Positions 5,583 to 28,360 of a stretch of 64,000 nt of DNA are shown piece by piece. A program made the translations under genes and the position numbers. Source of the stretch: Nephrocerus scutellatus (taxonomy: Eukaryota > Arthropoda > Insecta > Diptera > Pipunculidae); NCBI GenBank assembly GCA_947095585.1, contig OX352761.1, positions 66,481,823 to 66,545,822 on the forward strand. Reading direction: 5' to 3'. Under the pieces are notes generated by a model. The model searched no databases and was not told the origin of the DNA. It worked only from the letters and a program-made list of their open reading frames with translations. Position 1 is the stretch's first letter. The number at the start of each line of letters is the position of its first letter.

Positions 5583-8500
5583 CACTATCCTACCCCCAGT
5601 GAACGCTGTGAACGATAGAAAGCTACTGATAGCGAGCTGGTTTGTTGATAGTGCGACCTCCTCTGGATCGGATCGGTTCAGTGATATTTTGCTGATAACT
5701 TACTTTTTCCGAGATGTATATGTTTTCTCTTCGCCGATGAGTGATGGTTCATGCGTAGAGTTCGCTTTGGTTGGTATTTCAATCGATGTACTGGTAGGTT
5801 GTTCGGATTGTTTTGCTTCTATGAAACAGGGTTTAAGTCGGCTTATTGAAACCGTTGCATCCTAACCTTTGATAAGCAGCGTGAAGTATTTTTCGTTTCG
5901 TTTGATTATCGGGTATGGTCCCTCGTATGGCGGTTGTAGTGATTTGCGCACTGCGTCTGTTCGAACTAAAACGTATTCGCATGTTGGTAATTCCTTGAAA
6001 AGGAAGATTTATTCTTTCGAATGTCGTGATGGTGACGAGGTCTGAATGTCTTTAAATTGATTCCGCAACTGTATAACTAATTCGGACTGATGAGTATTCT
6101 TGCTTGGTTGAATAAAATCCGCAGGTAGTCGTATATGTTCTCCGTAAACGAGTTCGAGCGATGTACTTTGTAAATCATCCCGATATTAAGTTCTCAGGCC
6201 GAGTAATATTAGCGGTAAAGATTTTGTCCATTGTTGTTTTCCAACGCACATTATTGCTCTTTTTAAGGTGCGGTGCCAACGTTCTATCATTCCGTTGCAA
6301 GCTGGATTATAAGCTGTCGTTCTTTTGCAGTTGAATCCGAGTGACTAGGACAGTTCATCGAGTAGGCTTGATTCGAATTGCGCGCCCCTGTCGGTCACGA
6401 TGCTTGTTGGGACTCCGAATCGGCTAATCCATGTATTGATAAGTGTATCAGCTTTTGTTTCAGTTCTAATATTAGGGATTGGTGTGGCTTCTGCCCAACT
6501 TTCTTTTGGCGTGTTTTGTTATTTTACATCTTTGGCAGCGTACACAATGTTTAGTCCAAGAGCTTATTTCCTGGTTCATGGCTGGCCACAAAATTTTTTT
6601 TCAGATTTGTCTCGTTGTGGCACGAATACCGGGATGAGAGACGTTGTGGTATGCTTCGTAGACTTGCCGACGAAATGCCCTAGGAATGAATGGACGTTGT
6701 GTGTTCGTTGAAATGTCACATACAATTTCTTTATTAGTGCCAAAAACCGGACATTTTTTGAACTTTAGAGACGTATTTGATTCCATTAGGCCCGCTAGCT
6801 CTGAATCTTTTGTTTGTTCATCTGCGATTGATACGTAATCGATTGTGCTTCCTACGCTAATCTGTTCGTCGCGTGAAAGAGTATCAGCAACGACGTTGTT
6901 GTCGCCCGAAATGTGACGAATGTCCGACGTGTACTGCGCTATGAAGTCTAGGTGGCGGCGTTGTCTGGGTGAGGCTCTCTCAAGATTTTGCCGTAGCGCG
7001 AAGGTTAGTGGTTTATGGTCCGAGAATAGAATAAATTCTCGGCCTTCGACGAAATTTTTGAAATGCTTGATGGCTGAATAAGCAGATAAAAGTTCCCTGT
7101 CGTACGTACTGTAGCGAGTTTCGGCGTCATTTAGCTTTCGCGAATAGGAGAAAAGTGGTTGCCAACCTCTTTGTGTTAGTTCTTGTAATACTGCTCCTTC
7201 TGCTGTATTTGACGCGTCGACAAGGATTGCGAATTTGGCGTTCGGAATCTATTGGTGATTTATCCCTTTTTTTGGCCCTTGATAAACTCGTACAATATCG
7301 CCTGGTCATGTGCTACGTTAGGTAGAAAAATTCTATAGTAATTTAACATTCCCAAAAATCGAAGAATGACGTCGGTCGTAATCGGTTTTGGGTAATTTTA
7401 AATTGCCTCTACTCTGTGTTTATCAGGCAGCATGCCGTTTGCGTTGATGTTGAAACCGAGGAAAGATATTTCGGATGTTTAAATTAATTACTAAACCTGC
7501 AAAACGATACGTAAGTGGTCTAAATGGTTCTCGTTGTTTCGTGAGGCGATGAGCACATCGTCGATGTACGGGAATACGAATGCCAGGTCTCGAAAAAATG
7601 AGTGAACCAATCGTTGGAATGTTTGGGCCGCGTTACGTAACCCGAATGTCATCCGCGGGAACTCGAACAATCCAAACGGAGTTGTGATTGCGGTTTTCTC
7701 GATGTCTTTTTTCTCGATTGGGACCTGTGTCTGCTCGCACTCGCATGAGGTCGATCTTTGAGAACCTGGTGCATGACTCGAGCTGATGCGTGAAATCGGT
7801 CACGAACGGAATCGGATAACGGTCTGGTTTTGTCATCGAATTTAAGGCCCTGTATTCGCCATATAATCTCCAGTTGCCATCCTTTTTCTACGCGATGTGT
7901 AGCGGGCTTGCCCAATTGCTTTTGGAGGGCCGGCGTATTCCCTATGCCATCCAACCTTCAATTTCGGCCTTAGCAGTTTTCATTATCCGCATTTAGCCGT
8001 TGTACCTTCGCGTGGCAAGGCTGACCGGATGTCTAGATGCAGTGTGCAACGCTGTGGCTTGCTGTGTTTAGGTTTGCCGACTCGTGAGAGACTGCTTTGA
8101 ACACGTGTAGTAGTTCCGCTATCTCGGGTTTTACTAAATGGGTATTTATTGTTGTTAAGCCATATGACGTAATTTGTATTGGTTTTCCTTTGACATCGAG
8201 TTTTGTGTCCGAATCGATAAGCTTTTTGTTTTTTACATCGACCAATAAACCGTAGTGTGATAGGAAATCAGCGCCATCGATTGATTTTTGCCACAACATA
8301 CCTCCATGTCAGTGGTCTGCGAAGGGTTATGTTGAGTGTGAAGTTTTTGTTACCGTACGTGTCGATAGCTGTATAGTTGGCTGCGAATAATTTAAATGTA
8401 GTTAAATTTGACTTTTTTAGGTTTGCTGGTGGTATTACCGAAACGTCTGCACCTGTGTCAATAGGGAATTGTAGCTTATTTTGAGAATCGACTATGATAA

Positions 8501-8638
8501 GGCGGCTGTTTGAAGTTTGGCTACCAACACTTGCCGCTTGCAGCGTGGTGCAGGGTTTAATGCATTTTGTGGCTTGGATCCCGAGTTTGTAATGGTACCA
8601 ACAATTAGGGTGTTTGGCTACCTGTTCATTTGATCGCG
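5583..8638 (-). pseudogene. pol: CsRn1-like gypsy Gag C terminus and Pol, degenerate
   Basis: Domains in order on the minus strand: a Gag zinc motif near 8600-8520 (CWYHYKLGIQATKC..PC, the CHCC-type motif of the CsRn1 clade); protease (FPIDTGADVSVIPP near 8470, then IDGADFLSHYGLLVDV near 8280); reverse transcriptase at about 7950-7400 (KKDGNWRLYGEYRALN, FSKIDLMR, ITTPFGLFEFPR, then YIDDVLIAS, with the YIDD active-site box); RNase H at about 7240-6900 (ILVDASNTAEGA, YDRELLSAYSAIKHF, FSDHKPLTFALR); integrase at about 6790-5770 (zinc-finger part, then [10 protein letters not shown], then NGMIERWHRTLKRA). Between about 6540 and 6490 the sequence jumps from the CXXC of the integrase finger to WAEATPIPN, so the start of the catalytic core with its first Asp is deleted. 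Frameshifts and stops occur throughout. The missing N-terminal Gag is at 32907-33613. Confidence 0.8.
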
Positions 8639-8942
8639 AATTTGTAATGAACTATCACCTTCGTTAAACCGAGATGATTTGAGGCGAAGACGCAACTTCG
8701 CTCGGCATTACAACCGAATGCCGTATGGTGGGGCTGAAGCAGCGTGCACGTCTAGTTCGGCTCTTGCTAGCTCGCCGGATTGGGAGGGGGTTATTTGCCG
8801 CCAGCCACACACCGTCCTCATTGACAAAAAAAAATATTTTGTAGTTACGTGCACAAAAAAAAAAAAAAACCCTGGAGAGACAACTAAGAGCAGAATGCCT
8901 TCCCTGGTTATCTGGTCCGACCAACCCGGGACGCCATTGCAT

Positions 8943-10295
8943 TGTATTATATATATATAGAGATAAGGTAGAAATAACTAAGTAAGGCTAAGTAAATGTA
9001 GTGCATGGGTGTATTATATATATATATATATAGAGATAAGGTAGAAATAACCAAGTAAGGCTAAGTATACTTAAGTAAGGCTAAGTAAATGTAGTGCATG
9101 TGTGTATTATATATATATATATAGATAAGGTAGAAATAACTAAGTAAGGCTAAGTATACTTAAGTAAGGCTAAGTATACTTAAGTAAGGCTAAGTATATT
9201 TAAGTAAGGCTAAGTAAATGTAGTGCATGTGTGTATTATATATATATAAAGATAAGGTAGAAATAACCAAGTAAAGCTAAGTATACTTAAGTAAGGCTAA
9301 GTATACTTAAGTAAGGCTAAGTAAATGTAGTGTAGGTGAGTACTATATATATATAGAGATAAGGTAGAAATAACTAAGTAAGGCTAAGTATACTTAAGTA
9401 AGGCTAAGTTAATGTAGTGTATGTGTGTATTATATATATATATAGAGAGATAAGGTAGAAATAACCAAGTAAGGCTAAGTATACTTAAGTAAGGCTAAGT
9501 AAATGTAGTGCATGTGTGTATTATATATATATATAGAGATAAGGTAGAAATAACCAAGTAAGGCTAAGTATACTTAAGTAAGGCTAAGTAAATGTAGTGT
9601 AGGTGAGTACTATATATATATAGAGATAAGGTAGAAATAACTAAGTAAGGCTAAGTATACTTAAGGAAGGCTAAGTAAATGTAGTGTAGTGTAGTATATA
9701 TATAAGAATAATGTTCATATGATTAGGTGATATATTTAAGTAAGGCTAGGCTCATGTAGTGCGTGTTTGTTTTTAAATATGAAAAAAAAATAATGTTCAT
9801 ATGATTAGGTAATAAAGGTAAGTAAGGCTAGGCTCATGTAGTGCGTGGTTGTTTTATATATATATATGTAAGAATAATGTTCATATGATTAGGTAATATA
9901 TTTAAGTAAGGCTAGGCTCATGTAGTGCGTGTTTGTTTTTAAATATAAAAAAATAATGTTCGTATGATTAGGTAATATAGGTAAGTAAGGCTAGGCTCAT
10001 GTAGTGCGTGTTTGTTTTTAAATATATAAAAAAATAATGTTCATATGATTATGTAATATAGGTGAGTAAGGCTAGGCTCCTGTAGTGCGTGTTTGTTTTT
10101 AAATATATAAAAAAAATAATGTTCATATGATTAGGTAATATAGGTAAGTAAGGCTAGGCTCATGTAGTGCGTGTTTGTTTTATATATATGTAAAAATAAT
10201 GTTCGTATGATTAGGTAATATAGGTAAGTAAGGCTAGGCTCATGTATTGCGTGTTTGTTTTTAAATATATAAAAAAATAATGTTAATATGATTAG
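8943..10295. repeat. LTR satellite arrays: AAGGCTAAGTATACTT type and AATGTTCATATGATTAGG type
   Basis: From 8943 to about 9700 units of roughly 85-130 bp consist of a TA-dinucleotide run, AGATAAGGTAGAAATAACC, one to four copies of a ~22-bp subrepeat (AAGTAAGGCTAAGTATACTT) and TAAATGTAGTGCATGTGTG. From about 9705 to 10295 the array changes to ~83-bp units: AATAATGTTCATATGATTAG, GTAATATAGGTAAGTAAGGC, TAGGCTCATGTAGTGCGTGT, then T- and A-rich filler. Both types share GTAAGGCTA and TGTAGTG, so one probably arose from the other. The same arrays recur at 17187-18320, 26896-27257 and 31672-32033. Confidence 0.9.
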
Positions 10296-11163
10296 GTCAA
10301 AATACGTTAACGGATACCGTTGGCGGAAACCCCTCTGGTAGGGCGGATTGCCGAAGAACAACTATAAGCGGACAAGGAGAAACCGAGGGCTTTTCCATGC
10401 CCCGTGCGTGGCGAGCATGGACGCGTCGAGCGGCACTTTCCATATAATTAAATTGTATAATTGGATTGTTATAGGTACTTACGCAGAGGGGAAAAGTGAG
10501 GTTGGAGGTGGTTGTGAGGAATTTCCTTCAAGCTGCTTATTTTCTTGTTGCCACCAGTAATCCAGCGTAATCGTGGTGATCCTCTGTTTCCAACAAGGAC
10601 TGATGCTGCGATCTTTGGTTGGATCCTGTTCCTGACCTTGCCTTTTCCTAAATTACACGATGGTTAGTACAAACATTTTGTTTAACGCCATGATGTTCAC
10701 TCGCGCGAACAGCAATTGTCATTTTTTTTCCATAAATCTTCTTTTTTTTATAAAATTTTATTGGTTTACCTCTCTGCGCCTTCCGTTATGCCTAGTATTT
10801 TTCCTTCCTTTCTTTTTTTTTTTTTTTCTTTGAAATTTTTCTAAGTTTGTTCTTTTTCCCAATTGACTTTCGTCTATAAGTTGTCTTGGTCTATATATTT
10901 TTTTTTTGTTGCTGACTTTGTTTTAGTCTTAACCGACTTGTACACTCGGCCAGCTTCTTTTCGGAAAGAGACCGGTTTTCATGCCATGGCCGACGAGAAG
11001 TCTCCGTTTGCATTTACCAATCCATATCTGTGCTAAAGTGAGACGACGCATGTTCTATTATCGGTGGTGACAACGAACTTGGTGGTTTACACGGGACTTG
11101 TGCAAGTAGAGTGACGTAAGTGTTTTTTAGGTTGGTCCGATGACCCAAACGTACACCATCACA
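10296..11163 (-). repeat. Conserved outer U3 block of the Osvaldo/Ulysses-like LTR
   Basis: This ~870-bp non-repetitive block occurs three times: here, at 27258-28130 and at 32034-32906. The first differs from the other two at roughly a dozen positions plus T-run lengths; the last two differ at one or two. In element orientation it begins TGTGATGGTGTACNTTTGGG. A 70-codon frame lacking an ATG start is preserved in all three (10348-10560) but looks incidental. Poly-T runs (10720-10910) vary in length. Its position right after pol marks it as the beginning of U3. Confidence 0.75.
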
Positions 11164-11820
11164 AAAACAGATATCCAGAATTAGCTCCCAGCTAGTTCCG
11201 GAGATCTGAGCCGATATTACACTCTGGTTTGCATCAGGTCTTTAGCATGATATGTGCCTATTAACTTTCCTCGTAAGTCTTCCAGAATATAGTATGCGGT
11301 GCCGCATTTTTCCCGAATTCGTGCTTTCAGAAATGTTGGGGATAGTTTAGCGTTAAAACGTTTCCCAAAATTGCTTTGGGCGAAATTTCGCCGCAGCACT
11401 TCCTGACCCACTTTAAAATGTACGGGTTTCGACCGGAGGTTGTACGTTCTTGCATTTCTTTCTTGGGCTTTTCGAAGATTTGTCCGTACCTCATTACGTA
11501 CTAGGGCCACTATGTCTTGCTTCGAAAGTTCCACGCAGCCTTCTTCGAGCATGTGTATTTTCCGTAGAAGCTTATAGTCGTTACCATGATTAAGCATGTG
11601 TTGACCGAAGATAACGAAATATGGACTATGTCCTGTTGATTGGTGTACGGAATTACGCAAGGCTCCATTTATATCGCTCAGGTGAACATCCCACTCGGTG
11701 TGGTTTTGACCAACGTATGCTCGCAACGCGGCGTTCACGGATCGATTCACACGTTCTGAAGCGTTCGACTGTGGCGAGTGGACCGCTGTGTAGAAATGGT
11801 GAATTCCACAGGAGGTGAGA

Positions 11821-11836
11821 ATTCATTCATTCATTC
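11821..11836. repeat. (ATTC)4 microsatellite inside the integrase frame
   Basis: Four perfect ATTC units lie in the middle of the integrase core, where the minus-strand frame reads SAEFE followed by a stop; the downstream conserved frame (GIHHFYTAVHSPQSNAS) resumes in another phase. Repeat expansion by slippage is the simplest cause of this particular break. Confidence 0.8.
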
Positions 11837-14190
11837 AAATTCAGCCGATTTAAACTGACTTCCGTTATCAGATATGATGGTTTCCGGAACGCCAAATATG
11901 TCAAATATATATTCCTTCAGGTATCCAATTATCAGGGACGAAGTGAACTTCTTTAGGGGTTTCAAAGAGGTAAACTTGGATAAATGGTCCAAGACAATTA
12001 GAATGCCTATATTGCCTTGTGTAGATCTTGGGAAAGGTCCAATTATATCTATAAACAATCTCTGAAATACCCGTTCTACTGTTGCCAACTGACCCATGGG
12101 TGGGCGTAGAATTTTGGTGGGGTATTTGGTCGTAACACATGTTTCGCATGATAGCACGTACTTCCGGACGTCTTTGACTAGCCCGGGCCAGTAGAAATAT
12201 CTTCGCAATCTTTCTAATGTCTTAGCTACTCCACCGTGTGCGGCTGACGGTGCATCATGCAACTTCTGAATCAAACCGTTTCGTAAGGCTTGCGGTACAA
12301 ATAACTTCCAACACGATTTTACATGCTCTGGATGGTCGTCAAGGAAACAGGTCCGATGATAGACATACTTATCTATCACTTGTAAATCAGGAGAATTTGC
12401 TGGGTTTCCGGAAACTCTAGAACGTAAATCCTGGTATTCGGTCGAATCGAACTCGTTCGATTCCAGATCAATCAAAGACTCATCCGTTGTGACGATGGCG
12501 GCTAAATCCTTAGTCGACGCCGAAAAGACGCGAGAAAGAGCGTCTGGAACCATGTTTGCACTTCCCTTGCGGTGTTGAATATCAAACACATAACCCTGCA
12601 ACTTGAGAGCCCATCGAGCGAGTCTGCCATTCAGGTCAGTTTGTCTCATAAGCCAAGCTGGCATGATCGGTTATTATAGTAAAAGTCTGTCCTTCAACAT
12701 ATTGACGGAACTTTTTAACAGCTAATACCGCTGCAAGACATTCCAACTCTGTAACCGAATCATTACGCTGAGCCTTGTTCAGCTTTTGCGACATGTAGGC
12801 TATGGGTACTTCGATCCCTTGTTGCTGAGATTTTATCTGGATCCGTTTGCAAGGTCCCATGTCCAATTATGTAACCCAGGTATTTGACCTCTTTTAACAG
12901 GAATCTACTTTTGCTTACATTGATAGTTAGTCCTGCTTTCCGAAGCAAAAGAGCGACCTCCTTCAAAAGCGAAATATGGGAATCAAAATAGGCCGATACC
13001 AATAATAGATCGTCTAAGTAAACAAAGACCTTCTCTTTGAGTTGATTCGGGATGACTTTGTCCATTAATCGGCACATCGTTTGCGGTGCGTTGCACAGCC
13101 CAAACGGCATCACAGCGAACTGATATAGTGGACGATTTGGCACCGTGAACGCAGTCTTTTCTCGGGAAGACTTTTCGAGTGGGATTTGCCAAAAGGCGTG
13201 TTTTAAGTCTAGACTGGAAATACAGTTAGCTTTCGGCAATCGGCTTAAAATTCCTTCTATTTACCGTCACTGAATTCACCTTTCTACTATCAAGGCACAA
13301 TCGCACTTTATCAGGCTTACGTACAAGAACAACCGGCGACGACCACGCACTGCTTGATTCTTCAATAACTCCTAGCGCTAACATTTGGTCGAGCTCTTTA
13401 CCCATCAGCTGTTCAATCGCTGGAGAAATCGGGAGATGCCTTTGCTTGATTGGTTTTGCATCTTTGGTATCAATGCTGTGTTCGATTAAATTCGTCTTCC
13501 CAAGTCCTTCTAATTCAAATGATGGAAATAATCGTTTCGCGGTTTCAAGTTTGCGTAGTTGAGCTACGGTCCAAGCATGTGTCGACTCTTCGGATGTCGT
13601 AGGCAAAGGCGCATTCAGTTCACTTACGATCTGTGGGGCTACTCTGAAAGCCTTCCAAAAGTCAACTCCCAAATACAGGTCTTGATACAACTCTGGGATA
13701 ACAAAGAATTCCAAGGCGTGAGTGTCGTCTTTGAACGTCACATCCAACCAGATGCTACCACAAACCTTTTGGGATTTACCGTCAGCTGTTCTGACACTAG
13801 ATCTGAATTTCGCTAATTTGCGACCGTCCAAGAGTACTGACTTAGCCAGGGCAGCTCCTATGCAACTGATCGAAGCGCCACTGTCCAGTAGTCCCAGAAC
13901 CTTTGAACCCATAAGGCCAACTTGCGCGTAGGGCCTCATGTCGGAATCTATTGTAAGTATGGACGAAATTAGCTTCTTCTGGGTTGTCCGTATCTTAATC
14001 CAAAAGTTGTGCATACGCATTGAGGAACGAGACTTCTTTTTACTCATATTATTGCCAAATAATTCAGTTCGCTTTAGCTTATCATCATGCAATCCCCAGT
14101 GCAATGGTTTATGAGTAGACAATATTGGTTTACCAACTGGAACTCCTTCGGTCTCTAATACAGTTGGTGGAGAAGATAAAGATGAAGAAA

Positions 14191-15829
14191 TTATTTCGGA
14201 TGCCTGCTGGTGTACTTGCAAACATCCTTCTGCCGGTTTTCCGGATTCGAGCATTTATGGCAATTTGGTTTGTAAGTATCGACTGCTCCACACCCGTAGC
14301 AGAATACTCGCCGCTGCTTTACGCATTCTTGATAACCGTGTCCCCGCTCATCACAGTTCCAACATTTGAATGGTCTTCGCTCACTCAACCGGCACTAGGC
14401 TGCCATCTCTTTCTCCGTGGATAGATCTGGTGTTCTTCTGCCGGGGGCCAATTCGGATACTAGCCGCCTCGGTGGAAAGGGTTTTGTGAAGCTCGAGTGA
14501 CAACGGAAATCGTCAAAGAAATTTTCATGTCTTCGACATGCTCGACGAAGGTGAGATAATGTGGTTATGTCCGAATGCAACAACTCTAATCTAATATCTG
14601 GCTTCAGATTTCTAAGCACGCTTTCTACTAATTCGTGTTCTGACATCGCGGATTGCAGTCGGTCCGCCAAGGTCATAATCGATTCGAGAAATTGATCGAA
14701 TGATTCGCGATCGGATTGTTTTCTATTTCTGATTGCCTCTTTGATGTCATAATCCGTCCGAAAGTCGTTGTATTGCTGTTTTAAAGCCCCGCAAATGTCT
14801 TGCCAAACTAAGAAACGTACGCTACGGTGGTATCGCCAATACCAGTCGCGAGCCTTTTCTTCAAATAAGACATGAATGTTTTGACACAGTGCCGGGAAAT
14901 TACCTTGGAGTGACTGTTGGGTCAAAGAGGTTACACGGTAAATAAATTCCGCTACCGTGATACCATCTCTGGATCCATCAAACTTTAGCCTCCAATTGAC
15001 AATGGTCTTTGCGACCGAATCAGAATGGGCATTGGAAGTTCCTGACCAAACAGGCGGTCCATGTGCGAATGTAGGAAGGTCGTTCTCTTCATTCCAAAAA
15101 TGAACTTTCTGATTGGGCCCCCGAGATCTTCTGTCACCTCCACGTACATCTGAAAAGGGTAGGTCTTCAGGCCAATCTGGTTCGCTCCTAATAAGGGAGT
15201 TAGCTGGAGTGACCGGAAAAGTTGGGTTATTATGTTTCGTAATGAAACCGGACAATGATTCGGTAATCATCCCTCCTACTACGGAACGAATTTCTTGCAT
15301 TGTACTGTCGCGATGAGCTACTAGCGCATCTTGGACCAAGTTCTGGACACGAGTAAAATCGAGGGGACTTTTATTACGCCCCGGGTGACGATTACTAGAA
15401 TGAGTGTTCGATCTCTGTAGCTGTTCGTTACAGGCGAGAGTTGTCTGTGCTTCGACATTATCTGCCGGTAACACAGTAGTCAATCTTGACCTCGAGCGGG
15501 TTGTAGGAATCGGTTTTCGGAATCGCACCTCGTTCAGTTGCGTCCCCTGGTTGTGCTACAACCGCAGACGGATTTGCTGAGGCGCCCAGAAGCTCATTCA
15601 CGGGTGCCTTCACCGGTACTGAATCGCGACCAGATATGAAAATCTCGCTTCTACAAACCGGACATGTTGTGTGCCTTTCCAGCCAGGAATCTAGGCAGAG
15701 CCTATGAAACATGTGTGCACATGAAGTGATTTCAATTATGGAGTGATCGGCTATCTCCAAGTTGCAGATCGCGCAACTAGGGTTATCCGCTATAACGGAT
15801 AAGTTATCACCCCTGTGTCTCACAGCCAT
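14191..15829 (-). pseudogene. gag: RING-H2 domain joined to Gag of the Osvaldo/Ulysses-like element
   Basis: The first ATG with coding support is at 15829. Residues 19-59 form a complete RING-H2 finger: Cys19, Cys22, Cys37, His39, His42, Cys45, Cys56, Cys59 (C-x2-C-x14-C-x-H-x2-H-x2-C-x10-C-x2-C). RING-H2 fingers bind two zinc ions and usually recruit ubiquitin-conjugating enzymes. This frame runs to 15458. The Gag frame is one base out and opens at about 15552, with no ATG before its conserved part, so a one-base indel within 15552-15458 appears to have split a RING-Gag fusion. Gag follows (NWRLKFDGSRDGITVAEFIY, then FEEKARDWYWRYHRSVRFL and SDRESFDQFLESIMTLADRL, a typical gypsy capsid core). 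An in-frame TAG at 14397-14395 comes just before two zinc knuckles: CWNCDERGHGYQEC, and CYGCGAVDTYKPNC, which lacks the usual His. It ends at 14191 inside Pol. Confidence 0.8.
14236..14242 (-). promoter_or_regulatory. Candidate -1 ribosomal frameshift heptamer at the gag-pol overlap
   Basis: On the minus strand the heptamer GGAAAAC lies within the gag-pol overlap and is read by Gag as G GAA AAC. Pol is in the -1 frame and open from 14254, so slippage here would join the two frames. A AAC is an efficient A-site slip, but the P-site triplet GGA is not a perfect XXX, so this is a suggestion. No downstream structure was computed. Confidence 0.35.
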
Positions 15830-16713: not shown

Positions 16714-16737
16714 GTTCGAGCCCCACGTTGGGCGCCA
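16714..16737 (-). other. Primer-binding site for tRNA-Lys
   Basis: The plus strand reads GTTCGAGCCCCACGTTGGGC followed by GCCA, the 3' end of fly tRNA-Lys(CUU) including the CCA tail. The minus strand is therefore TGGCGCCCAACGTGGGGC followed by TCGAAC, a 24-base primer-binding site for first-strand synthesis of a minus-strand element. It directly abuts the 5' LTR. Confidence 0.9.
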
Positions 16738-17074
16738 CCTTCGTTAAACCGAGATGATTTGAGGCGAAGACGCAACTTCGCTCGGCATTACAACCGAATG
16801 CCGTATGGTGGGGCTGAAGCAGCGTGCACGTCTAGTTCGGCTCTTGCTAGCTCGCCGGATTGGGAGGGGGTTATTTGCCGCCAGCCACACACCGTCCTCA
16901 TTGACAGAAAAAAATATTTTGTAGTTACGTGCACAAAAAAAAAAAAAAAAAACCCTGGAGAGACAACTAAGAGCAGAATGCCTTCCCTGGTTATCTGGTC
17001 CGACCAACCCCGGACGCCATTGCGGAGAGAAGGGACTGAGTCAAATAATAAATAATAATTCTCTACTCGGTCAT

Positions 17075-17082
17075 TTTTATAC
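17075..17082 (-). promoter_or_regulatory. Candidate TATA box in the 5' LTR
   Basis: The minus strand reads TATAAAAA between the satellite portion of U3 and the R-U5 segment, the expected place for the LTR core promoter. The corresponding ~165 bp are absent from the 3' LTR. No start site was mapped. Confidence 0.4.
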
Positions 17083-17186
17083 AAAACGTTATAAATTTAT
17101 TCCTCTTTTCCTTCCTCTTTTTTTTTTGTTTATATATAGATAGTATTCATACGCTTAAAATAAAAACAATTCAGTACTGTTCCGCA

Positions 17187-18320
17187 AATGTAGTGTATGT
17201 GTGTATTATATATATATATAGATAAGGTAGAAATAACTAAGTAAGGCTAAGTATATTTAAGTAAGGCTAAGTAAATGTAGTGCATGGGTGTATTATATAT
17301 ATATATAGAGATAAGGTAGAAATAACCAAGTAAGGCTAAGTATACTTAAGTAAGGCTAAGTAAATGTAGTGCATGTGTGTATTATATATATATATAGATA
17401 AGGTAGAAATAACTAAGTAAGGCTAAGTATACTTAAGTAAGGCTAAGTATACTTAAGTAAGGCTAAGTATATTTAAGTAAGGCTAAGTAAATGTAGTGCA
17501 TGTGTGTATTATATACATATATAGAGATAAGGTAGAAATAACCAAGTAAGGTTAAGTATACTTAAGTAAGGCTAAGTATACTTAAGTAAGGCTAAGTAAA
17601 TGTAGTGTAGGTGAGTACTATATATATATAGAGATAAGGTAGAAACAACTAAGTAAGGCTAAGTATACTTAAGTAAGGCTAAGTTAATGTAGTGTATGTG
17701 TGTATTATATATATATATAGAGATAAGGTAGAAATAACCAAGTAAGGCTAAGTATACTTAAGTAAGGCTAAGTAAATGTAGTGCATGTGTGTATTATATA
17801 TATATTTAGAGATAAGGTAGAAATAACCAAGTTAGGCTAAGTATACTTAAGTAAGGCTAAGTATACTTAAGTAAGGCTAAGTAAATGTAGTGTAGGTGAG
17901 TACTATATATATATAGAGATAAGGTAGAAATAACTAAGTAAGGCTAAGTATACTTAAGTAAGGCTAAGTATACTTAAGTAAGGCTAAGTAAATGTAGTGT
18001 CGGTGTGTACTATATATATATAGAGATAAGGTGGAAATAATTAAGTATGGCTAAGTATACTTAAGTAAGGCTAAGTAAATGTAGTGTATGTGTGTATTAT
18101 ATATATATAAGAATAATGTTCATATGATTAGGTGATATATTTAAGTAAGGCTAGGCTCATGTAGTGCGTGTTTGTTTTTAAATATGAAAAAAAATAATGT
18201 TCATATGATTAGGTAATAAAGGTAAGTAAGGCTAGGCTCATGTAGTGCGTGGTTGTTTTATATATATATATGTAAGAATAATGTTCATATGATTAGGTAA
18301 TATATTTAAGTAAGGCTAGG
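17187..18320. repeat. LTR satellite arrays in the 5' LTR (inner portion)
   Basis: These are the same two repeat types as at 8943-10295: TA-run/AAGTAAGGCTAAGTATACTT units from 17187 to about 18105, then the AATGTTCATATGATTAGG type to 18320, where the errantivirus inserted at GCTAGG. The first type occupies about 0.92 kb here against 0.76 kb in the other LTR, showing array length change since insertion. Confidence 0.88.
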
Positions 18321-19051
18321 TGTTAACATAGAGAATATCCCACTACAGGCACCCGTTATAATATAGAAATACTGAATAACAATATAAGATATTCACAGTA
18401 TGTAATCACATAATCACATAGAATAAGAATAATGTAAATGCGATCCAACTTCATATCTTGTTTACCAATTTCACAACATGATGAAATCATCTTGTTTACT
18501 ACTTTAACATTCAAGGCCAATCTTATCTCACAATACGAATTTTGTCAACATGTTTACCATCTTCAATTCAAGGCCAATTAATGATCAAAACGCCAGATGG
18601 TCAATTACGACGAATTTAGATATTTATTCAAAACATGCTAGAACATTAAAACAACCTTATCTCAAATCAGATCTAAGACAATAACATGTTTACGTCCTCA
18701 AAGACGAAAACAAGTTCAAAGTCCAAAACTATTTCACAACACAAGTTGGATCACATAACAAAATAAGTATATAGAAATAAGTATAAAAGCAGAAGCATTC
18801 AGTATTCATTATTCATTAAGTATCCGGGATTCATTAAGTTTCCATCCAACATTCATTAAGTATCTGGTATTCATTAAGTTAACGGATTGTATTATTAACA
18901 CTTCCATTCTACAAATTTATACACAGTGATACAGGATATAGAATCATTCAATAAAGATATTGTCTTAAATAATTTTCTTGTGACTTGTAATATTATTTTA
19001 ATAAAGAAAGATCTTTTTTAAAATTTACTAAGTTACATTGAAAACATAATT
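18321..19051 (+). mobile_element. Errantivirus 5' LTR (731 bp)
   Basis: It starts TGTTAACATAGAGAATATCC and ends AAAACATAATT, sharing its last base with the primer-binding site. It includes a TATA box, four imperfect ATTCATTAAGTATC repeats at about 18805-18885, and AATAAAG words near 18950 and 19000 that could serve as polyadenylation signals. It is matched by 26165-26895 and 30941-31671. Confidence 0.92.
18782..18803 (+). promoter_or_regulatory. LTR core promoter: TATA box and initiator-like TCAGT
   Basis: TATAAAA at 18782-18788 is followed at 18799-18803 by TCAGT, the arthropod initiator consensus. This arrangement fits the LTR promoter of a gypsy-type element; transcription would start near 18801. 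Confidence 0.6.
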
Positions 19052-19070
19052 GGCGCAGTCGGTAGGATAG
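19051..19070 (+). other. Primer-binding site for tRNA-Ser
   Basis: TGGCGCAGTCGGTAGGAT directly after the LTR is complementary to the 3' end of tRNA-Ser (acceptor stem CGACUGC, discriminator G, CCA). tRNA-Ser is the primer recalled for the 17.6/297 group of errantiviruses. Confidence 0.85.
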
Positions 19071-19130
19071 TGCTAAGTCAACTAAGACTTATTTTTTTTA
19101 AAAAATTTAAAGCACTCCACAACAACAAAA

Positions 19131-19600
19131 GTGAAAAAAAAATTTCTACAGCAGAAGTGCAGAAATTTCACAAAATTCTACGAAAATTATTGCATTATTC
19201 GCAATAATAGTGAACAAAATTTCTACAGCAGAAGTGCAGAAATTTCACAAAATTCTACGAAAATTATTGCATTATTCGCAATAATAGTGAACAAAATTTC
19301 TACAGCAGAAGTGCAGAAATTTCACAAAATTCTACGAAAAATTATTGCATTAATCGCAATAATAGTGAACAAAATTTCTACAGCAGAAGTGCAGAAATTA
19401 CACAAAATTCTACGAAAGTTATAGCATTATTCGCAATAATAGTGAAAAAAAATTTCTACAGCAGAAGTGCAGAAATTTCACAAAATTCTACGAAAAATTA
19501 TTGCATTATTCGCAATAATAGTGAACAAAATTTCTACAGCAGAAGTGCAGAAATTTTACAAATATTTTTACAAAAATAATTACATTATTCACAAAAATAA
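19131..19600 (+). repeat. Six ~78-bp direct repeats in the errantivirus leader
   Basis: Units begin GTGAACAAAATTTCTACAGC at about 19131, 19210, 19287, 19365, 19442 and 19521 and contain AGAAGTGCAGAAATTTCAC and ATTATTGCATTATTCGCAAT. They are 90% or more identical. Tandem repeats in the leader before gag occur in several retroelements; a role in packaging or translation is possible but unproven. Confidence 0.9.
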
Positions 19601-19810
19601 GTGAACCATTTTTATAAACATTTTTACAAAAATAATTACATTATTCACAAAAATAAGTGAACCATTTTTAAAAAAACATTTTTACAAAAATAATTACATC
19701 ATTTACAAAAATTAGTGAACCATTTTTACAAACACTTTTTTACAAAAATAATCGCATTATTCACAAAAATAAGTGAAAAATTTTACGAACATTTTCTACA
19801 AAATAAAGAA
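19600..19810 (+). repeat. Four ~58-bp direct repeats in the errantivirus leader
   Basis: Units starting GTGAACCATTTTTA, with TTTTTACAAAAATAATTACA and TTATTCACAAAAATAA, follow directly on the 78-bp repeats and look like a shortened derivative of them. Downstream, 19850-19990 has three further short repeats around GCAGCATCATTAGAAGACAA. Confidence 0.8.
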
Positions 19811-20187
19811 CATTAACAAAATAAACTATTGGTCAAATCAACATAAAGAAGACGAATCAAAGACAATTATCCGCAGCATCATTAGAAAACAAATCAAAGA
19901 CGCTTCTCCGCAGCATCATTAGAAGACAAATAAAAGACGATTATTCACAATATCACTAGAAGACAAATTAAAGACGATTCAACATAATAAATTAACAAAG
20001 AACATCAATCAATATTTATCATCAAATTGCTGATCTGAAAATTAAATCAAGGTGAAATCATAGACATTTTTACTATTAAAAAATATATACACTATTTAAA
20101 TAATTTTTAACAAATATATTATATATATAAAATATAAGGTTACTTTATTTTTTTTATTATTACAAACAAATATTTAATAAAATCAAA

Positions 20188-21199
20188 ATGGAAAATCAAG
20201 TAAATAATTTAATGCAAGATAATTTAATGCAAGAAAATAATATTATCTTAGAAAATAAAATAATCCTAAATCCTATTTATCAGAAAAGCTAGAGAAGTAA
20301 TAGAAATTAATACCCAAGCCATTGCTTAGAATGATATAAAAATCGTTTTACAAAAGAACTTTGCCGAAAGACGTAGTGTAGAACAACTTTTCGACGAATT
20401 GAGAGGTGTTACTTTCAAAAACAATGTTTTAGGTTTTTTCAACGAAATAAAAGATAAACTACGAAAATTAAATAACAAAACTTTATTAGTAACTGGCCCT
20501 GGTAAAATAGCGAACGAATGTTCATTAAATAACATACGTACTGCACTTGATATATTTAAAAATAAAATACCTGAACCAATGAAAACAATTCTAATTTGTA
20601 GAAATCCTGAGAATTTAGAATCAGCAATTGATATACTTAGTCAAACAGGCTACGCAGATCAATCAAATCCAGAACCATTCTATAATCACAATAATAATAG
20701 GAAAATACGTTATAATAATAATTACAATAAAAATATTAATTTTTCTCCAAATAAACAAGAATATGGAAATAAATACCAACAAAACCCAAACAGAAATGAA
20801 CATCTTAACAATTATAGATACAGACAGACAGAACCAAATCAGAATAAAAAAGAACAATTTAATAAAAATGACCAAAGACAAAATAGAGAAAAACAATATA
20901 ATAATTATAGATCCGACCAATATCAGAATAGGAACAGGCAGTTCAACAATTATAGAAATGATAACTATAATAATTATAGATCCGATCAATATCAGAATAA
21001 GAACAGACAGTTCAATAATTATAGAAATAATAGTTATAATAATTATAGACAACCAAATTATCATCAATTCACAAGTGACATTCCAAATAATTTGCCTGAT
21101 ATCCAACAAAATCAAACTGTCGAACCTATGGACATAAATAAATGCGAAACAAGCGAAAATTTTCACTTACAAGCCTCGGAGGAGATTTACCATATGTAA
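20188..21199 (+). pseudogene. gag: Errantivirus gag, N-terminally damaged
   Basis: An ATG at 20188 opens a frame of 34 codons that stops at 20290. The main Gag frame lies in another phase, with a stop at 20327-20329, and is open from there to 21199. The visible protein (about 290 residues) has a short capsid-like part (GFFNEIKDKLRKLNNKTLLV, then IDILSQTGYADQ) and a long Asn/Tyr/Arg/Gln-rich tail with repeats such as NNYRSDQYQNRNRQFNNYR at about residues 110-200. No zinc knuckle is present, as expected for errantiviruses, whose basic tail is thought to bind RNA. Compared with Gag of the group, much of the N-terminal half appears to be missing. Its end overlaps the pol frame by about 58 bases, the usual arrangement for frameshifted Gag-Pol. 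Confidence 0.75.
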
Positions 21200-24100
21200 A
21201 AATCAAATCTAATAAAAATCCATTAAAATTTATTACCGATACTGGAGCAACAAACTCTATTATAAATCCAGGTCTTTGTAATCCTAAATGGAAAGTACCA
21301 AATTATAAAATTCAAATTAAAACACTACAACATAATATAAACGTAACTGAAAGAGTATCAGTTCCCCTTTTTAAAGAATTTGGTGATCTAAAGCAAAAAA
21401 TTGACTTTTTAGTCTGCGCGTTCCATGACAAATACGACGGTATTATTGGAAACGACATACTAAAACGATTTAACGCTAAAATAGATTATAAACATAATCT
21501 ATTAGAAATCAATGGACAAACTATACAAATGTTGTTTGAAAGATCAAACAAACATACTGTACAGTTATTGGTGAATCAACAAGAAGGATTAGTTTACCTC
21601 AAGAAGCAGAAGTTCTTGAAAAACGAAATAATTTTTGATGAAGGAATTTACAATGTTGAAAATCATAAGATTGAAGTTCAAACGAATGTAAAATGCCAAG
21701 GTCCATTTGAAATAAATCCAAATGAAATTGAAGAAGTTAATATAAAAAATTTCTCTATAATAGAAGAATATAATAATAAATTATTAACGGAACAAATACG
21801 AACTCAACATCTCAACGCAGAAGAGAAACAAAAATTATTAAAAATAATAAACCAATATTCAAACATTTTTTATCAAGAAAATTCAAATCTCTCTTTTACA
21901 AATGCAATTAAACATGAAATACGTACCACTGATAATGTACCAATAAACGCGAAGTCATACAGATATCCTTACATACATAAAGATGAAGTCAAAACCCAGA
22001 TTCAAGAACTCCTCAAAAATAATATTATAAGGCCGAGCCATTCGCCTTATTCAGCCCCTGTGTGGATTGTACCGAAAAAGGTCGACGCCAGTGGAAAACA
22101 AAAGTGGAGGCTTGTCATAGACTATCGTAAACTAAATGAAGTTACAATAGACGACAAGTACCCTCTACCAAATATTGATGATATATTAGATAAACAGGGC
22201 AGATGCCAGTATTTCACAACCCTTGATTTAGCTAAGGGATTTCATCAAATAGAAATTGAGGAAAAAGATATTCATAAAACAGCCTTTAGCGTAGAAGGAG
22301 ACATTAAGAATGCCATTTGGACTGAAGACAGCCCCAGCGACATTTCAAAGACTTATGAACAATATCTTAAAGGATTATATCAATAAGATTTGTTTAGTCT
22401 ATCTGGACGACATTATCATCTTCTCTACTTCAATACAAGAGCATATACATTCAATCAATTTAATATTTAATTGCTTAAGGAAAGCAAATCTAAAATTTCA
22501 ATTAGATAAATCAGAATTTCTAAAGAAAGAAACAGAATTTCTTGGACACATTGTGACACAAAACGGAATAAAGCCAAATCCAAAAAAAATAGAATGCGTA
22601 AATAAATTTCCAATACCCAAAACTACGAAACAAATTAAACAATTTTTAGGACTAACGGGTTATTACAGAAAATTCATTAAAGACTATTCATTAATAGCAA
22701 AGCCAATGACATTATTCTTAAAAAAGAATGCTAAATTAGACATTTCAAATATAAAATATCAAGAAAGTTTTAACACACTTAAAAAATTATTAATAAATGA
22801 TCCAATATTAAGTTATCCCGATTTCAATAAAAATTTTACCCTTACAACAGATGCTAGTAATTATGCTTTAGGAGCAATACTTTCTCAAAATAATCATCCG
22901 ATATGTTACGCTAGCAGAACATTAAATGAACATGAAATAAATTACAGCACCATTAAAAAAGAACTATTAGCAATCGTCTGGTCAACAAAATATTTTAGAC
23001 CATATCTTTTTGGACGTAAATTTACAATCGAAACCGATCATAAACCTTTAACTTGGCTTTTCTCAATCAAAGAACCAAATTCAAAACTAGTAAGATGGAG
23101 ACTAAAACTATCCGAATTTGATTATGAAATCACATATAAAAAAGGAACCAAAAATAAAAATGCAGATGCACTCTCCCGAATAGAAATAAATCTTACAGAA
23201 AGAAATGAAGAAAATAGATCAAACATATTTCCACTTAGTAAATCCCCTTTAAATATATTTAAAACACAAATAGCAATCTTTAAAATTACTTCCGGTTCAT
23301 TAAGAATTAAACAAATAAAAATTTTTAATAAAAATAGAAAAGTTATTTATATCAAATCACTGGATGAAGAAACAGCATTAATACTCTTAAAATCGCATTT
23401 TAACCCAAAATACTTAAACTGTCTTTATGCAGATAACGAAGAATTTATAAAAACATTAGAAGATGTTTATCAAAAATATTTTTCAGACCAAGGACAATTA
23501 AAAATTATTAAAACTAACAAATTCCTAAAAGATATAACAGATGAAGAAGAATTATTTGAAATCATTAAAAATGAACATCTCAGAAATAACCACAGAGGAA
23601 TCATAGAAGTATACAAAGAACTATTCTTAAAATTTTATCATCCAAAGTTCAATATTAGAATAACCCAATTTATCAACAATTGCGAAATATGTAATTTAGA
23701 AAAATATGATCGAAATCCAATTAAAAATAAATATCAACTAACGGAAACCCCTTCAGCACCAAACGAAATTATTCATGCAGACGTTTTCTATTCACTTGAA
23801 AAACAACTCTTTGTCACGTTCATAGATAAATTCAGCAAATTCGCTCAAGCAATAAAAATCACAGCAAGAACATGGACAGAATTTAAAAGAAGCATTCTAA
23901 CGTTAATCGCTGCTATTGGACCAATAAATAAATTAATTGTAGATAACGAGCTAGGATTTAAAGCTCTTCCACTTAAAGAATTTTTACAAAACGAAAACAT
24001 AGAAATTCATTATACCTCAAATTATAACCACACATCCAATTCAGATGAAGAAAGACTACATAACACAATCAATGAACACATTAGATTATTAAGGCATGAT

Positions 24101-24529
24101 CCAAACACAAATAATAATACTGTTGAGGAAAAGATATTAAAAATTATAAATTATTATAACAATACCATACATTCAACTACTGATAAAAAACCAATCGATT
24201 TTAAAAATGGAAAAATACATAACAACGAATATGATTCTATTAAAGATAAAATAATCAAGAAAAAACAAACTTCCATAAATAAATTAAATAAAGAAAGAGA
24301 AGATTTAGAAATACAACCAGGAACTACTTTCATTAAAGAAACACGCGGTGGAAAAAATCACACGAAATTCAGAAAACTTGATGCAGAAAAAATAGACGAA
24401 AATCATATAATCGATAAACGAAATAATTTAAAATATTATAAATCACACATCAAACGGAAAAAGAAATATCAAAACTACAATTCACCAACAATTAAAACAA
24501 AAGGAAAAACACATAAAAGTAACTCATAA
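21142..24529 (+). pseudogene. pol: Errantivirus pol (protease, RT, RNase H, integrase), one frameshift
   Basis: First part, 21142-22386: protease with FITDTGATNSIINPG (DTGA) and IIGNDILKRFNAKI; RT start with WRLVIDYRKLNEVTIDDKYP and FTTLDLAKGFHQIEI. A net frame change near 22290-22312 moves the conserved reading to the second part, 22310-24529: MPFGLKTAPATFQRL, VYLDDIIIFS (YLDD), the connection domain FLGLTGYYRKFIKDYS, RNase H (LTTDASNYALGAILSQ, TDHKPLTW), integrase zinc finger (H-x4-H, then CEIC near 23690), and catalytic core Asp in HADVFYS (about 23780), Asp in IVDNELGF (about 23945) and Glu in the DEERLHNTI block (about 24050). The C-terminal tail is very Lys/Asn-rich. Apart from the single frame change, all catalytic boxes are present; the copy as it stands would not make complete RT. 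Confidence 0.88.
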
Positions 24530-24630
24530 GCTAGTAAAATCTTAAAACAGAAGAAGAAAAATTAAAAAAATAACATAACATAATATAAACTACGAGTAAC
24601 TCCAATAAAACAAGAATTCAAAATTAAATC

Positions 24631-24638
24631 TTTTACAG
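24631..24638 (+). promoter_or_regulatory. Candidate splice acceptor for env mRNA
   Basis: TTTTACAG ends exactly one base before the env ATG at 24639. Errantivirus Env is made from a spliced subgenomic RNA, and a pyrimidine-rich tract ending in CAG right at the env start fits that use. The donor site was not located. Confidence 0.5.
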
Positions 24639-26210
24639 ATGAATTTTCAAATCATCATTTTATCAACTATACTATGCTGTTATCCAAATACTAAAGCACA
24701 ATTTCTTGAGATACACAATTTAAACAATAATAACGGATACATGACAATTAAAAAGGAAGATATAAACATTATTCAAAATTTTAATAAAATTCTACATATA
24801 ATAAACATAACAGAAATAGAAAATACTATAGATCATTTAAATGAAAATATTAATCTTATACAAACCAAAATAGGTATAACTAACCCAATGTTTAATACAC
24901 TAATACATAACTTCAGACAATTAAAACGAAAAATATCTAATCTTAAACCACATCCAAAAGTAAAACGAGCATTAATAAACATATAAGGTACAGGACTTAA
25001 ATATATAGCAGGCACAATGGATTCTCAAGACGAAATTGAAATAAAATCTCAACTAAAAGCTCTTAAATCAAAAAACAAAGAATTAATTTCAGAAAATAAT
25101 AAACAAGTTTCATTCAATTTTAAGATATCTCAACAGATAGGAAATATAACTCATCATATTCAAAACCAACAAAAGAATATTACACGACTTTTAAATGACT
25201 TTAATAAACTAAATAAAAAGGACATTACTAAGATAGAAAAAGAAATAAATTACATAGAACATATTTATCAAATTAATTATGACATCAATCTTTTCCGACA
25301 TCACATAGACGACATAGAACAAATTATTCTAACAAGCAAACTTGGTATACTTACAAGAAATATTTTAACAGAAAAGGAACTAAAACTAGCTAAAAATATC
25401 CAAGGACTTAAAGACACAAAAATAGCCGTAATATTCGAATATGAACTTATTATAATAATCCTCTTAATACCTGAATATTCTAACTCCTCATATTCCACTA
25501 TTATCATTGAACCAATGCCAAACAAAAACAATAAAGCCATATCATTAAACGAAAGTACCTTTATAATAGATCAAAATAATAATATATATGATAAAAATGT
25601 AAAAGATAAGTTAGAGAAAAACTTAAATAAAATAAGAAACAACTGTACTACAAATATTATTAAATTTGAAAAAGCCTATTGCAAAATGAAAAATTTTACA
25701 GAGGAAGAAATTAAAGAAATAATCCCAGGAATTGTAGTAACGAAAAATATTTCTAAAACAAATATCAAACATAACTGTAATCAATTAAAAATAGATATAT
25801 ATGGAAGCAAAATAATTAAATTCGAAAACTGTAATATAGAAATCGAAAATAAAACATATATAAATTCATATTTTAAAATAAAAGATGATATCATTCTTCC
25901 ATACTTTATATCAGAAGTAATAGAAAATAAAAGTATCGAAATAATCAAATAAGAAGATTTTCTTATCGAAAAAATAGAAAACAATAGAAAACATATTGAA
26001 GAAATTACTATAAAAACTAAAGAACAAACCTATTTTCATACATCTTATATATCCATAATTTTCATACTAATAATCATATTATCAATTTATAAATTTTTAA
26101 AATATAAGAAAAAATCAATATGTAAAGCTACTACTTCGTCGGAGCCTCAGGCTAGCGGTGGGGGTGTTAACATAGAGAATATCCCACTACAGGCACCCGT
26201 TATAATATAG
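24639..26210 (+). pseudogene. env: Errantivirus env with two in-frame stop codons
   Basis: One continuous frame from the ATG at 24639 to TAG at 26208-26210 is interrupted only by TAA at 24984-24986 and TAA at 25950-25952. It starts with a hydrophobic signal peptide (NFQIIILSTILCCYPNTKA, residues 2-20). At about residues 105-112 KVKRALIN resembles the errantivirus furin-type cleavage site and start of the fusion subunit; the first stop comes just after it. The middle has heptad-rich helical stretches around QQIGNITHHIQNQQKNITR. A C-terminal hydrophobic anchor (about 26040-26095) precedes a short tail that runs into the 3' LTR. Env in this group mediates membrane fusion and infectivity; this copy is inactivated. 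Both stops also occur in the duplicate at 29415-30986. Confidence 0.88.
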
Positions 26211-26895
26211 AAATACTGAATAACAATATAAGATATTCACAGTATGTAATCACATAATCACATAGAATAAGAATAATGTAAATGCGATCCAACTTCATAT
26301 CTTGTTTACCAATTTCACAACATGATGAAATCATCTTGTCTACTACTTTAACATTCAAGGCCAATCTTATCTCACAATACGAATTTTGTCAACATGTTTA
26401 CCATCTTCAATTCAAGGCCAATCAATGATCAAAACGCCAGATGGTCAATTACGACGAATTTAGATATTTATTCAAAACATGCTAGAACATGAAAACAACC
26501 TTATCTCAAATCAGATCTAAGACAATAACATGTTTACGTCCTCAAAGACGAAAACAAGTTCAAAGTCCAAAACTATTTCACAACACAAGTTGGATCACAT
26601 AACAAAATAAGTATATAGAAATAAGTATAAAAGCAGAAGCATTCAGTATTCATTATTCATTAAGTATCCGGGATTCATTAAGTTTCCATCCAACATTCAT
26701 TAAGTATCTGGTATTCATTAAGTTAACGGATTGTATTATTAACACTTCCATTCTACAAATTTATACACAGTGATACAGGATATAGAATCATTCAATAAAG
26801 ATATTGTCTTAAATAATTTTCTTGTGACTTGTAATATTATTTTAATAAAGAAAGATCTTTTTTAAAATTTACTAAGTTACATTGAAAACATAATT
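26165..26895 (+). mobile_element. Errantivirus 3' LTR (731 bp)
   Basis: It follows a short purine tract (GGTGGGGG). It has the same length as the 5' LTR, with three substitutions seen (near 26340, 26424 and 26492). The flank resumes with GCTAGG and satellite. Confidence 0.92.
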
Positions 26896-26901
26896 GCTAG
26901 G

Positions 26902-28130
26902 CTCATGTAGTGCGTGTTTGTTTTTAAATATATAAAAAAAATAATGTTCATATGATTAGGTAATATAGGTAAGTAAGGCTAGGCTCATGTAGTGCGTGTT
27001 TGTTTTTAAATATATAAAAAAATAATGTTCATATGATTATGTAATATAGGTGAGTAAGGCTAGGCTCCTGTAGTGCGTGTTTGTTTTTAAATATATAAAA
27101 AAAATAATGTTCATATGATTAGGTAATATAGGTAAGTAAGGCTAGGCTCATGTAGTGCGTGTTTGTTTTATATATATGTAAAAATAATGTTCGTATGATT
27201 AGGTAATATAGGTAAGTAAGGCTAGGCTCATGTAGTGCTTGTTTGTTTTTAAATATAGGTCAAAATAAGTTAACGGATACCGTTGGCGGAAACCCCTCTG
27301 GTAGGGCGGATTGCCGAAGAACAACTATAAGCGGACAAGGAGAAACCGAGGGCTTTTCCATGCCCCGTGCGTGGCGAGCATGGACGCGTCGAGCGGCACT
27401 TTCCATATAATTAAATTGTATAATTGGATTGTTATAGGTACTTACGCAGAGGGGAAAAGTGAGGTTGGAGGTGGTTGTGAGGAATTTCCTTCAAGCTGCT
27501 TATTTTCTTGTTGCCACCAGTAATCCAGCGTAATCGTTGTGATCCTCTGTTTCCAACAAGGACTGATGCTGCGACCTTTGGTTGGATCCTGTTCCTGACC
27601 TTGCCTTTTCCTAAATTACACGATGGTTAGTACAAACATTTTGTTTAACGCCATGATGTTCACTCGCGCGAACAGCAATTGTCAATTTTTTTTTTTTTTT
27701 TTTCATAAATCTTCTTTTTTTTATAAAATTTTATTGGTTTACCTCTCTGCGCCTTCCGTTATGCCCAGTATTTATCCTTCCTTTCTTTTTTTTTTTTCTT
27801 TGAAATTTTTCTAAGTTTGTTCTTTTTCCCAATTGACTTTCGTCTATAAGTTGTCTTCGTCTATATATTTTTTTTTTGCTGACTTTGTTTTAGTCTTAAC
27901 CGACTTGTACACTCGGCCAGATTCTTTTCGGAAAGAGACCGGTTTTCATGCCATGGCCGACGAGAAGTCTCCGTTCGCATTTACCAATCCATATCTGTGC
28001 TAAAGTGAGACGACGCATGTTCTATTATCGGTGGTGACAACGAACTTGGTGGTTTACACGGGACTTGTACAAGTAGAGTGACGTAAGTGTTTTTTAGGTT
28101 GGTCCGATGACCCAAAAGTACACCATCACA
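26902..28130 (-). mobile_element. 5' LTR of the Osvaldo/Ulysses-like element, outer part
   Basis: Satellite of the AATGTTCATATGATTAGG type (to 27257) is followed by the conserved U3 block (27258-28130), ending CATCACA on the plus strand (TGTGATG in element sense), then AATT and CsRn1-like gag. This is the continuation of 16738-18320 after removing the errantivirus. Confidence 0.75.
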
Positions 28131-28360
28131 AATTGCTGCGCTGACGTGGAGTATTGTCCGCTTTGGGAGCGAGCGCGATACGATGTATCACTAGACTTTT
28201 TGAAACGTCCACACAGTTCTTCCACCCGTTGAGACAGCGCGTTGATTTGGGCTACTAGATTGTTTTGTTGTTGGCTGGGTTCGTTTCTTGATGCCGCGTT
28301 TAGATTGTAGACACTTGCTGGTTTTTGAACCTCGATTATCTTGTCCGCTGCCTTTGCAAG
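28131..28360 (-). pseudogene. gag: Duplicated fragment of CsRn1-like gag
   Basis: The minus strand from 28360 to 28131 repeats the gag residues from AKAADKIIEVQKPASV to SGQYSTSAQQ found at 33136-32907. It is truncated at 28360 by the duplication joint and at 28131 by the Osvaldo/Ulysses-like LTR. It has no coding role. Confidence 0.85.

What the first reader, a model, noticed from the sequence alone, without database searches (positions are those of the whole stretch)
15458..15829. RING-H2 ubiquitin-ligase-type finger at the N terminus of a retrotransposon Gag
All eight zinc ligands of a RING-H2 finger (Cys19 to Cys59 with canonical spacing) sit in a frame that starts with the only plausible ATG upstream of Gag and then passes, one base out of phase, into the Gag frame that lacks its own ATG. 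This suggests the element encodes a RING-Gag fusion, or makes RING and Gag by frameshifting. A capsid precursor carrying an E3-ligase-like module could modify host restriction factors or control its own turnover. I do not recall this as a standard feature of gypsy elements.
Basis: partly seen in the sequence, partly recalled or inferred. Interest (0 to 1): 0.8.

Follow-up and report, generated by a model that had tools for sequence, protein, structure and literature searches.

The report
RING finger fused to retrotransposon Gag
A broken copy of a fly LTR retrotransposon whose capsid protein starts with a ubiquitin-ligase-like RING finger; relatives keep the two in one unbroken protein, and the fusion was already reported in 2013, but what the finger does is untested.

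Summary
The RING-H2 finger is real: 15653-15775, minus strand, all eight ligands (Pfam E 5.9e-12; no pattern match in 300 random 64-kb sequences). It belongs to a broken LTR retrotransposon with LTRs of about 2.5 kb. The RING-to-Gag frame change is a defect of this copy (decay or assembly error), not programmed frameshifting. Of 18 proteins found with the Gag alone, 15 carry a RING domain, 14 of these with a Gag domain in the same protein. Of 112 proteins that I took as family, 76 keep all eight ligands.

The fusion is in print: Negre and Simpson 2013 (PMC3630058) describe a RING in the 531-aa Gag of a Calliphora element of the Osvaldo lineage with 2.57-kb LTRs, and say Osvaldo has it.

Added here: 13 related Gags (two named, both mosquito) have another N-terminal domain instead. 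Outside the ligands the RING diverges as fast as the linker. The window's branch keeps the whole E2-binding set (I, W, P, R); a large clade mostly does not.

Best guess: a capsid-borne E3 ligase, active in some lineages. Activity and targets are untested.

The parts
15653..15775 (-). RING-H2 finger, residues 19-59 of the 15829 frame
   Evidence: Pfam PF13639 E 5.9e-12; coordinates; AlphaFold mean pLDDT 86-92 in the blocks 21-60
15458..15829 (-). open frame with the Gag start codon, the RING and the first part of the linker
   Evidence: N-terminal residues shared with relatives
14395..15555 (-). rest of Gag in another frame: linker and capsid domain; ends at a stop before the zinc knuckles
14251..14364 (-). 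Gag nucleocapsid zinc knuckles (CX2CX4HX4C plus a second Cys-rich unit)
   Evidence: same arrangement in relatives
13226..14254 (-). Pol: aspartic protease and start of reverse transcriptase
   Evidence: Asp_protease_2 E 1.3e-6
12763..13260 (-). Pol: reverse transcriptase, frame changed again
   Evidence: RVT_1 E 3.5e-30
11217..12866 (-). Pol: RNase H and integrase-like pieces in several frames, with stops
   Evidence: domain names here are read by eye from the translations, no Pfam scan of these pieces
16720..16737 (-). primer binding site-like stretch next to the 5' LTR; tRNA-Lys type by recall
   Evidence: sequence; tRNA assignment recalled, not tested
8656..11165 (-). 3' LTR, about 2.5 kb, with tandem repeats
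16736..18320 (-). 5' LTR, first part; the rest is at 26896-28132 because another LTR element lies in between
26896..28132 (-). 5' LTR, outer part; a second copy at 31672-32908 lies in a tandem duplication
   Evidence: aligns to 9911-11165 over 1268 columns, 95.4% identity, 14 mismatches, the rest gaps; duplication

Best explanation
This is a broken copy of a Ty3/gypsy LTR retrotransposon of flies, most likely of the Osvaldo lineage, whose Gag polyprotein starts with a RING-H2 finger. Shown: in relatives the order is RING, disordered linker, a helix of about 44 residues, capsid, zinc knuckles, all in one frame; here a frame defect separates RING from capsid. Inferred: the RING recruits an E2 enzyme of the UBE2D type and, being tethered to a protein that assembles into shells, acts as a clustered E3 ligase on Gag itself or on host proteins near the capsid. 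In the large clade where E2-contact residues are mostly not kept, the finger may persist as a fold used for binding or dimerisation.
For: 15 of 18 hits of the Gag-only search carry a RING domain; 76 of 112 family proteins keep all eight ligands; the 19 rows without the pattern are scattered on the capsid tree (18 changes in 88 rows; 406 of 500 shuffles as low). The window pairs with the Eurosta protein P0001 (100/97, 100/95). RING model confident; its only PDB match at E below 0.001 is RNF165 with UbcH5b~Ub (5ulk, E 8.3e-4). Nearest solved sequences are named E3 ligases: ZNRF3, RNF165, RLIM, EL5, RNF38. The window keeps I at C1+2, W at C6+4, P at C7+1 and R at C8+1, as only 4 of 77 RING carriers do with R, K or N at the last place. 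One AlphaFold model of P0001 matches both the dArc capsid (E 7.8e-4) and RING E3s (RNF12, E 1.5e-3).
Against: No activity data. The non-ligand RING positions are only 25% identical between family members, no more than the linker (27%), against 56% in the capsid. In the large group only 8 of 58 keep I/L/V plus P plus R/K/N. The Osvaldo lineage was not tested by a Pol tree. No target-site duplication was recognised at the LTR edges.
Confidence: 0.6

Rival explanations
1. The RING is a structural or protein-binding module (oligomerisation, localisation or RNA-related), not an enzyme; zinc folding is conserved and E2 binding is incidental.
For: Ligands invariant but the rest of the finger diverges like the linker; I/L/V at C1+2 in 28 of 58 and W in 1 of 58 members of the large group; in 13 related Gags an unrelated N-terminal domain takes the place of the RING.
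Against: P at C7+1 in 76 of 77 carriers and the whole contact set in the window's branch; nearest solved RINGs are E3s.
Confidence: 0.33
2. RING and Gag are separate products made by programmed frameshifting at the overlap.
For: In the window the frames overlap by about 100 bases and Gag has no ATG of its own.
Against: 14 of the 18 Gag-search hits have RING and Gag domains in one predicted protein; this copy has other frame changes and stops.
Confidence: 0.02
3. The RING was captured from a host gene only in this copy, or is a chance or assembly artefact.
For: None found, except that frame breaks in the window could partly be assembly errors (not tested; the LTR alignment shows few substitutions, 14 in 1268 columns).
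Against: RING-Gag proteins in seven named fly species: Eurosta, Ceratitis, Musca, Lucilia, two Drosophila, and a partial one in Glossina.
Confidence: 0.01

Closest known systems
Cv_Isis-like element of Calliphora vicina (Osvaldo lineage of gypsy), PMC3630058
   Same: RING finger in a 531-aa Gag, LTRs of 2577 and 2574 bp, no env reported (section 7 read). The window has RING plus Gag and LTRs of about 2.5 kb.
   Different: Described as intact and recent; the window copy is broken. Its sequence is in a supplement that I could not compare.
Osvaldo and Isis (Drosophila buzzatii), Ulysses (D. virilis)
   Same: By PMC3630058 Osvaldo also has the RING; Osvaldo, Isis and Ulysses form one group of Drosophila gypsy elements in PMC5408442 (passages).
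   Different: By PMC3630058 Isis lacks the RING and has env. Ulysses was not checked.
RING-H2 E3 ligases RNF165/ARK2C, RNF38, RLIM, ZNRF3
   Same: Zinc ligands, E2-contact I, W and P, linchpin R; best sequence and fold matches.
   Different: Cellular E3s; none of the 46 listed PDB sequences is named as a capsid protein.
RING-less Gags with N-terminal FPRAEDL domain (Aedes albopictus P0142, Malaya genurostris P0147)
   Same: Related capsid and zinc knuckles; GAIPK-type motif before the capsid in 8 of 13.
   Different: Another conserved N-terminal domain instead of the RING.
TRIM-type restriction factors (recalled, no call)
   Same: RING plus helix plus contact with a retroviral-type capsid, as an analogy only.
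   Different: Here the retroelement's own Gag carries the RING; no B-box seen in the Pfam scans.

Membership tests
RING-H2 finger fold | eight zinc ligands C3H2C3 with canonical spacing | tested here: met
RING E3 ubiquitin ligase | E2-contact residues (I/L/V at C1+2, W in the helix, P at C7+1) and linchpin R/K/N at C8+1 | tested here: met
   window has all; linchpin and Trp roles from passages of PMC9954413. For the family at large: 4 of 77 have all four
RING E3 ubiquitin ligase | ubiquitin transfer with an E2 | not testable with these tools
   needs biochemistry
Ty3/gypsy LTR retrotransposon | LTR pair, PBS, Gag with capsid and zinc knuckle, PR, RT, integrase after RT | tested here: met
   integrase read by eye from the translation, PBS type recalled
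Osvaldo lineage | place within the Osvaldo/Ulysses/Isis group on a Pol tree | not tested
   reference Pol sequences were not held; Gag RING and 2.5-kb LTRs agree with the Calliphora element
Osvaldo lineage | RING in Gag | tested here: met
   not strictly defining, since Isis is said to lack it
frameshift-expressed two-ORF arrangement | intact relatives keep RING and Gag in different frames | tested here: not met
   one frame in 14 of 18 hits

The most novel reading that the evidence does not exclude
An insect retrotransposon lineage took up a RING-H2 domain as the N-terminal module of Gag, in the place held by another domain in related Gags, and uses it as a capsid-borne E3 ligase against host factors; its surface diversifies fast under conflict, and a large clade has since lost the E2-binding face and kept the zinc fold for another use.
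Probability: 0.25. Interest if true: 0.75.

Novelty: new member of a known kind. Interest (0 to 1): 0.42.

Why it matters
Host cells use RING proteins to attack retroviral capsids; here the element itself puts a RING on its capsid protein. If active, it would be a transposon-encoded ubiquitin ligase whose targets could be sought directly in flies. The presence in seven named fly species, the replaced N-terminal domain and the split between clades that keep or lose E2-contact residues give a ready natural comparison. The architecture itself was noted in 2013 in a few sentences; I found no functional study of it in the nine answered literature searches, which cover open-licence papers only.

Tried and rejected
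Frameshifting between RING and Gag: rejected, relatives have one frame. Chance RING: rejected. A real RING-less branch inside the fly family: not supported, the RING-less rows are scattered and most start downstream of the RING; P0066, P0088, P0093, P0094 and P0101 keep part of a RING; P0071 has an unrelated start and could be a true loss or a wrong gene model. My first reading that K or R alone makes the linchpin was widened to N after PMC9954413. In one search the label 'E3set' was compared only with the mosquito-type rows, so its single change says nothing about loss inside the flies and is not used. Searches of viral contigs for DNA copies found no relative. I ended the family at P0112 by hand, leaving out P0113-P0137, which are mostly cellular RING proteins. 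Rows dropped: 25 of 113 before the tree (too short or no capsid motif); P0018, P0056, P0106, P0111, P0112 and P0142 before the tree, where P0149 and P0150 were also left out; 11 of the 76 RING carriers before the rate comparison (no usable capsid stretch).

Full report
What is there. On the minus strand an ATG at 15829 starts a 123-aa frame with a RING-H2 finger at 15653-15775. Pfam zf-RING_2 scores E 5.9e-12. The Gag frame, 15555-14395, overlaps it in another frame and lacks a start codon; it holds a Ty3-type capsid. The same frame then meets a stop before the zinc knuckles at 14251-14364, and protease, reverse transcriptase and integrase-like pieces follow in several frames. One RING pattern was found in the window and none in 300 random sequences of the same size and first-order composition.

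The element. Two long terminal repeats of about 2.5 kb flank it: 8656-11165, and 16736-18320 continued at 26896-28132, because a second LTR element on the plus strand (LTRs 18319-19052 and 26163-26896) lies in the 5' LTR. The outer LTR parts align over 1268 columns at 95.4%, with only 14 mismatches, the rest being gaps; the inner ends are 98.3% identical over 288 columns. A primer-binding-site-like stretch lies at 16720-16737 (tRNA-Lys type is recalled). I recognised no target-site duplication. With so few substitutions between the LTRs, some frame breaks could be assembly errors; this was not tested. Either way the RING-Gag frame change is a defect of the sequence in hand.

Relatives. The Gag piece alone, with no RING letters, found 18 proteins; 15 carry a RING domain by precomputed Pfam and 14 of these also a Gag domain; the three without (P0002, P0007, P0009) start late, P0007 within the tail of the RING. 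Named: Eurosta solidaginis and Ceratitis capitata. In an alignment of the window RING frame with 15 of them, the eight ligands, F41 and P57 are invariant in 16 of 16. A profile search added Musca autumnalis, Lucilia cuprina, Drosophila gunungcola, D. rhopaloa and Glossina pallidipes, plus many unnamed. Of 112 proteins taken as family, 76 match the full RING pattern; of the other 36, five keep part of a RING, P0108 is of the RING-less type, and most of the rest start downstream. The rows without the pattern are scattered on the capsid tree (19 rows, 18 changes, 406 of 500 shuffles as low). The window is sister to Eurosta P0001.

Kin without a RING. A search with capsid parts only (RING cut off, but with P0108 in the alignment) gave 28 proteins: 11 with a RING domain, 13 long or partial Gags with a shared N-terminal FPRAEDL-type domain and no RING, and 4 short ones (P0108). 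Two of the 13 are named, Aedes albopictus and Malaya genurostris. Eleven of them form one clade, 100/100, on a long branch. Eight of the 13 carry GA[IV]PK before the capsid, a motif also seen after the RING in the window, P0008 and P0082, and as GAIPR in P0015 and P0016. So the same place in Gag is held by either domain; which is older is not shown.

Could it be an E3 ligase? AlphaFold folds the finger well (block means 86-92 for residues 21-60). The nearest solved sequences are E3 ligases (46 listed, ZNRF3 first, then RNF165, RLIM and EL5), and the only fold match at E below 0.001 is RNF165 with UbcH5b~Ub. In P0001 the model shows RING, disordered linker, a helix at 139-182, capsid and knuckles; it matches the dArc1 capsid best (E 7.8e-4) and RNF12 RING next among RINGs (E 1.5e-3). 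Among 77 RING carriers, window included, P at C7+1 is kept in 76. The 19 outside the large group keep I/L/V at C1+2 in 19 and R/K/N at C8+1 in 15. The 58 of the large group keep these in 28 and 33, both together with P in 8, and W in 1. Fifty-four of the 58 were placed on the tree and form one clade (97/83). All four features are in the window, P0001, P0082 and P0096 only. That R, K or N can serve as linchpin, and that the helix Trp matters, comes from passages of PMC9954413; the same paper reports that R to K disabled Arkadia, so K and N are not equal to R.

Rates. For 65 proteins (2080 pairs) mean identity is 40% for the RING, 25% for its non-ligand positions, 27% for the linker and 56% for the capsid stretch. 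The zinc fold is kept while the surface changes. This fits conflict with hosts or weak constraint; without DNA of relatives the two cannot be told apart, and I had no control set of cellular RINGs of like divergence.

In print. [quoted passage not shown] a figure legend also marks a RING in its Pao_Cv1 element. A legend in PMC12910113 lists RING among domains of Drosophila virilis elements (passages). PMC5408442 (passages) groups Osvaldo, Ulysses and Isis. PMC3098803 holds no mention of RING or gag, and PMC12992720 none of a RING domain.

Verdict. The function is open.

Noticed in passing
18319-26896: A second LTR element on the plus strand (LTRs 734 bp, 99.6% identical, ORFs 20399-24529) inserted into the 5' LTR of the RING element.
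   Followed up: partly
23582-33136: A stretch of about 4.8 kb is present twice in tandem at 99.8% identity; recent duplication or assembly artefact.
   Followed up: no
36229-64000: Long, nearly identical repeated units (95-99%), two of them with a 172-aa frame that looks by eye like the end of a LINE-type polymerase.
   Followed up: no
7423-8651: Minus-strand pieces of another polymerase (tblastn match of the RT at 7503-7727, protease-like DTGA motif upstream), a further broken element next to the 3' LTR.
   Followed up: no
32870-33613: A 247-aa minus-strand frame that looks by eye like the Gag of yet another retroelement.
   Followed up: no
15515-15529: GAIPK motif shared between fly RING-Gags and RING-less Gags with the FPRAEDL domain; role unknown.
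   Followed up: partly
8943-10307 and 17186-18320: The LTRs are filled with tandem repeats of about 80-90 bp units.
   Followed up: no
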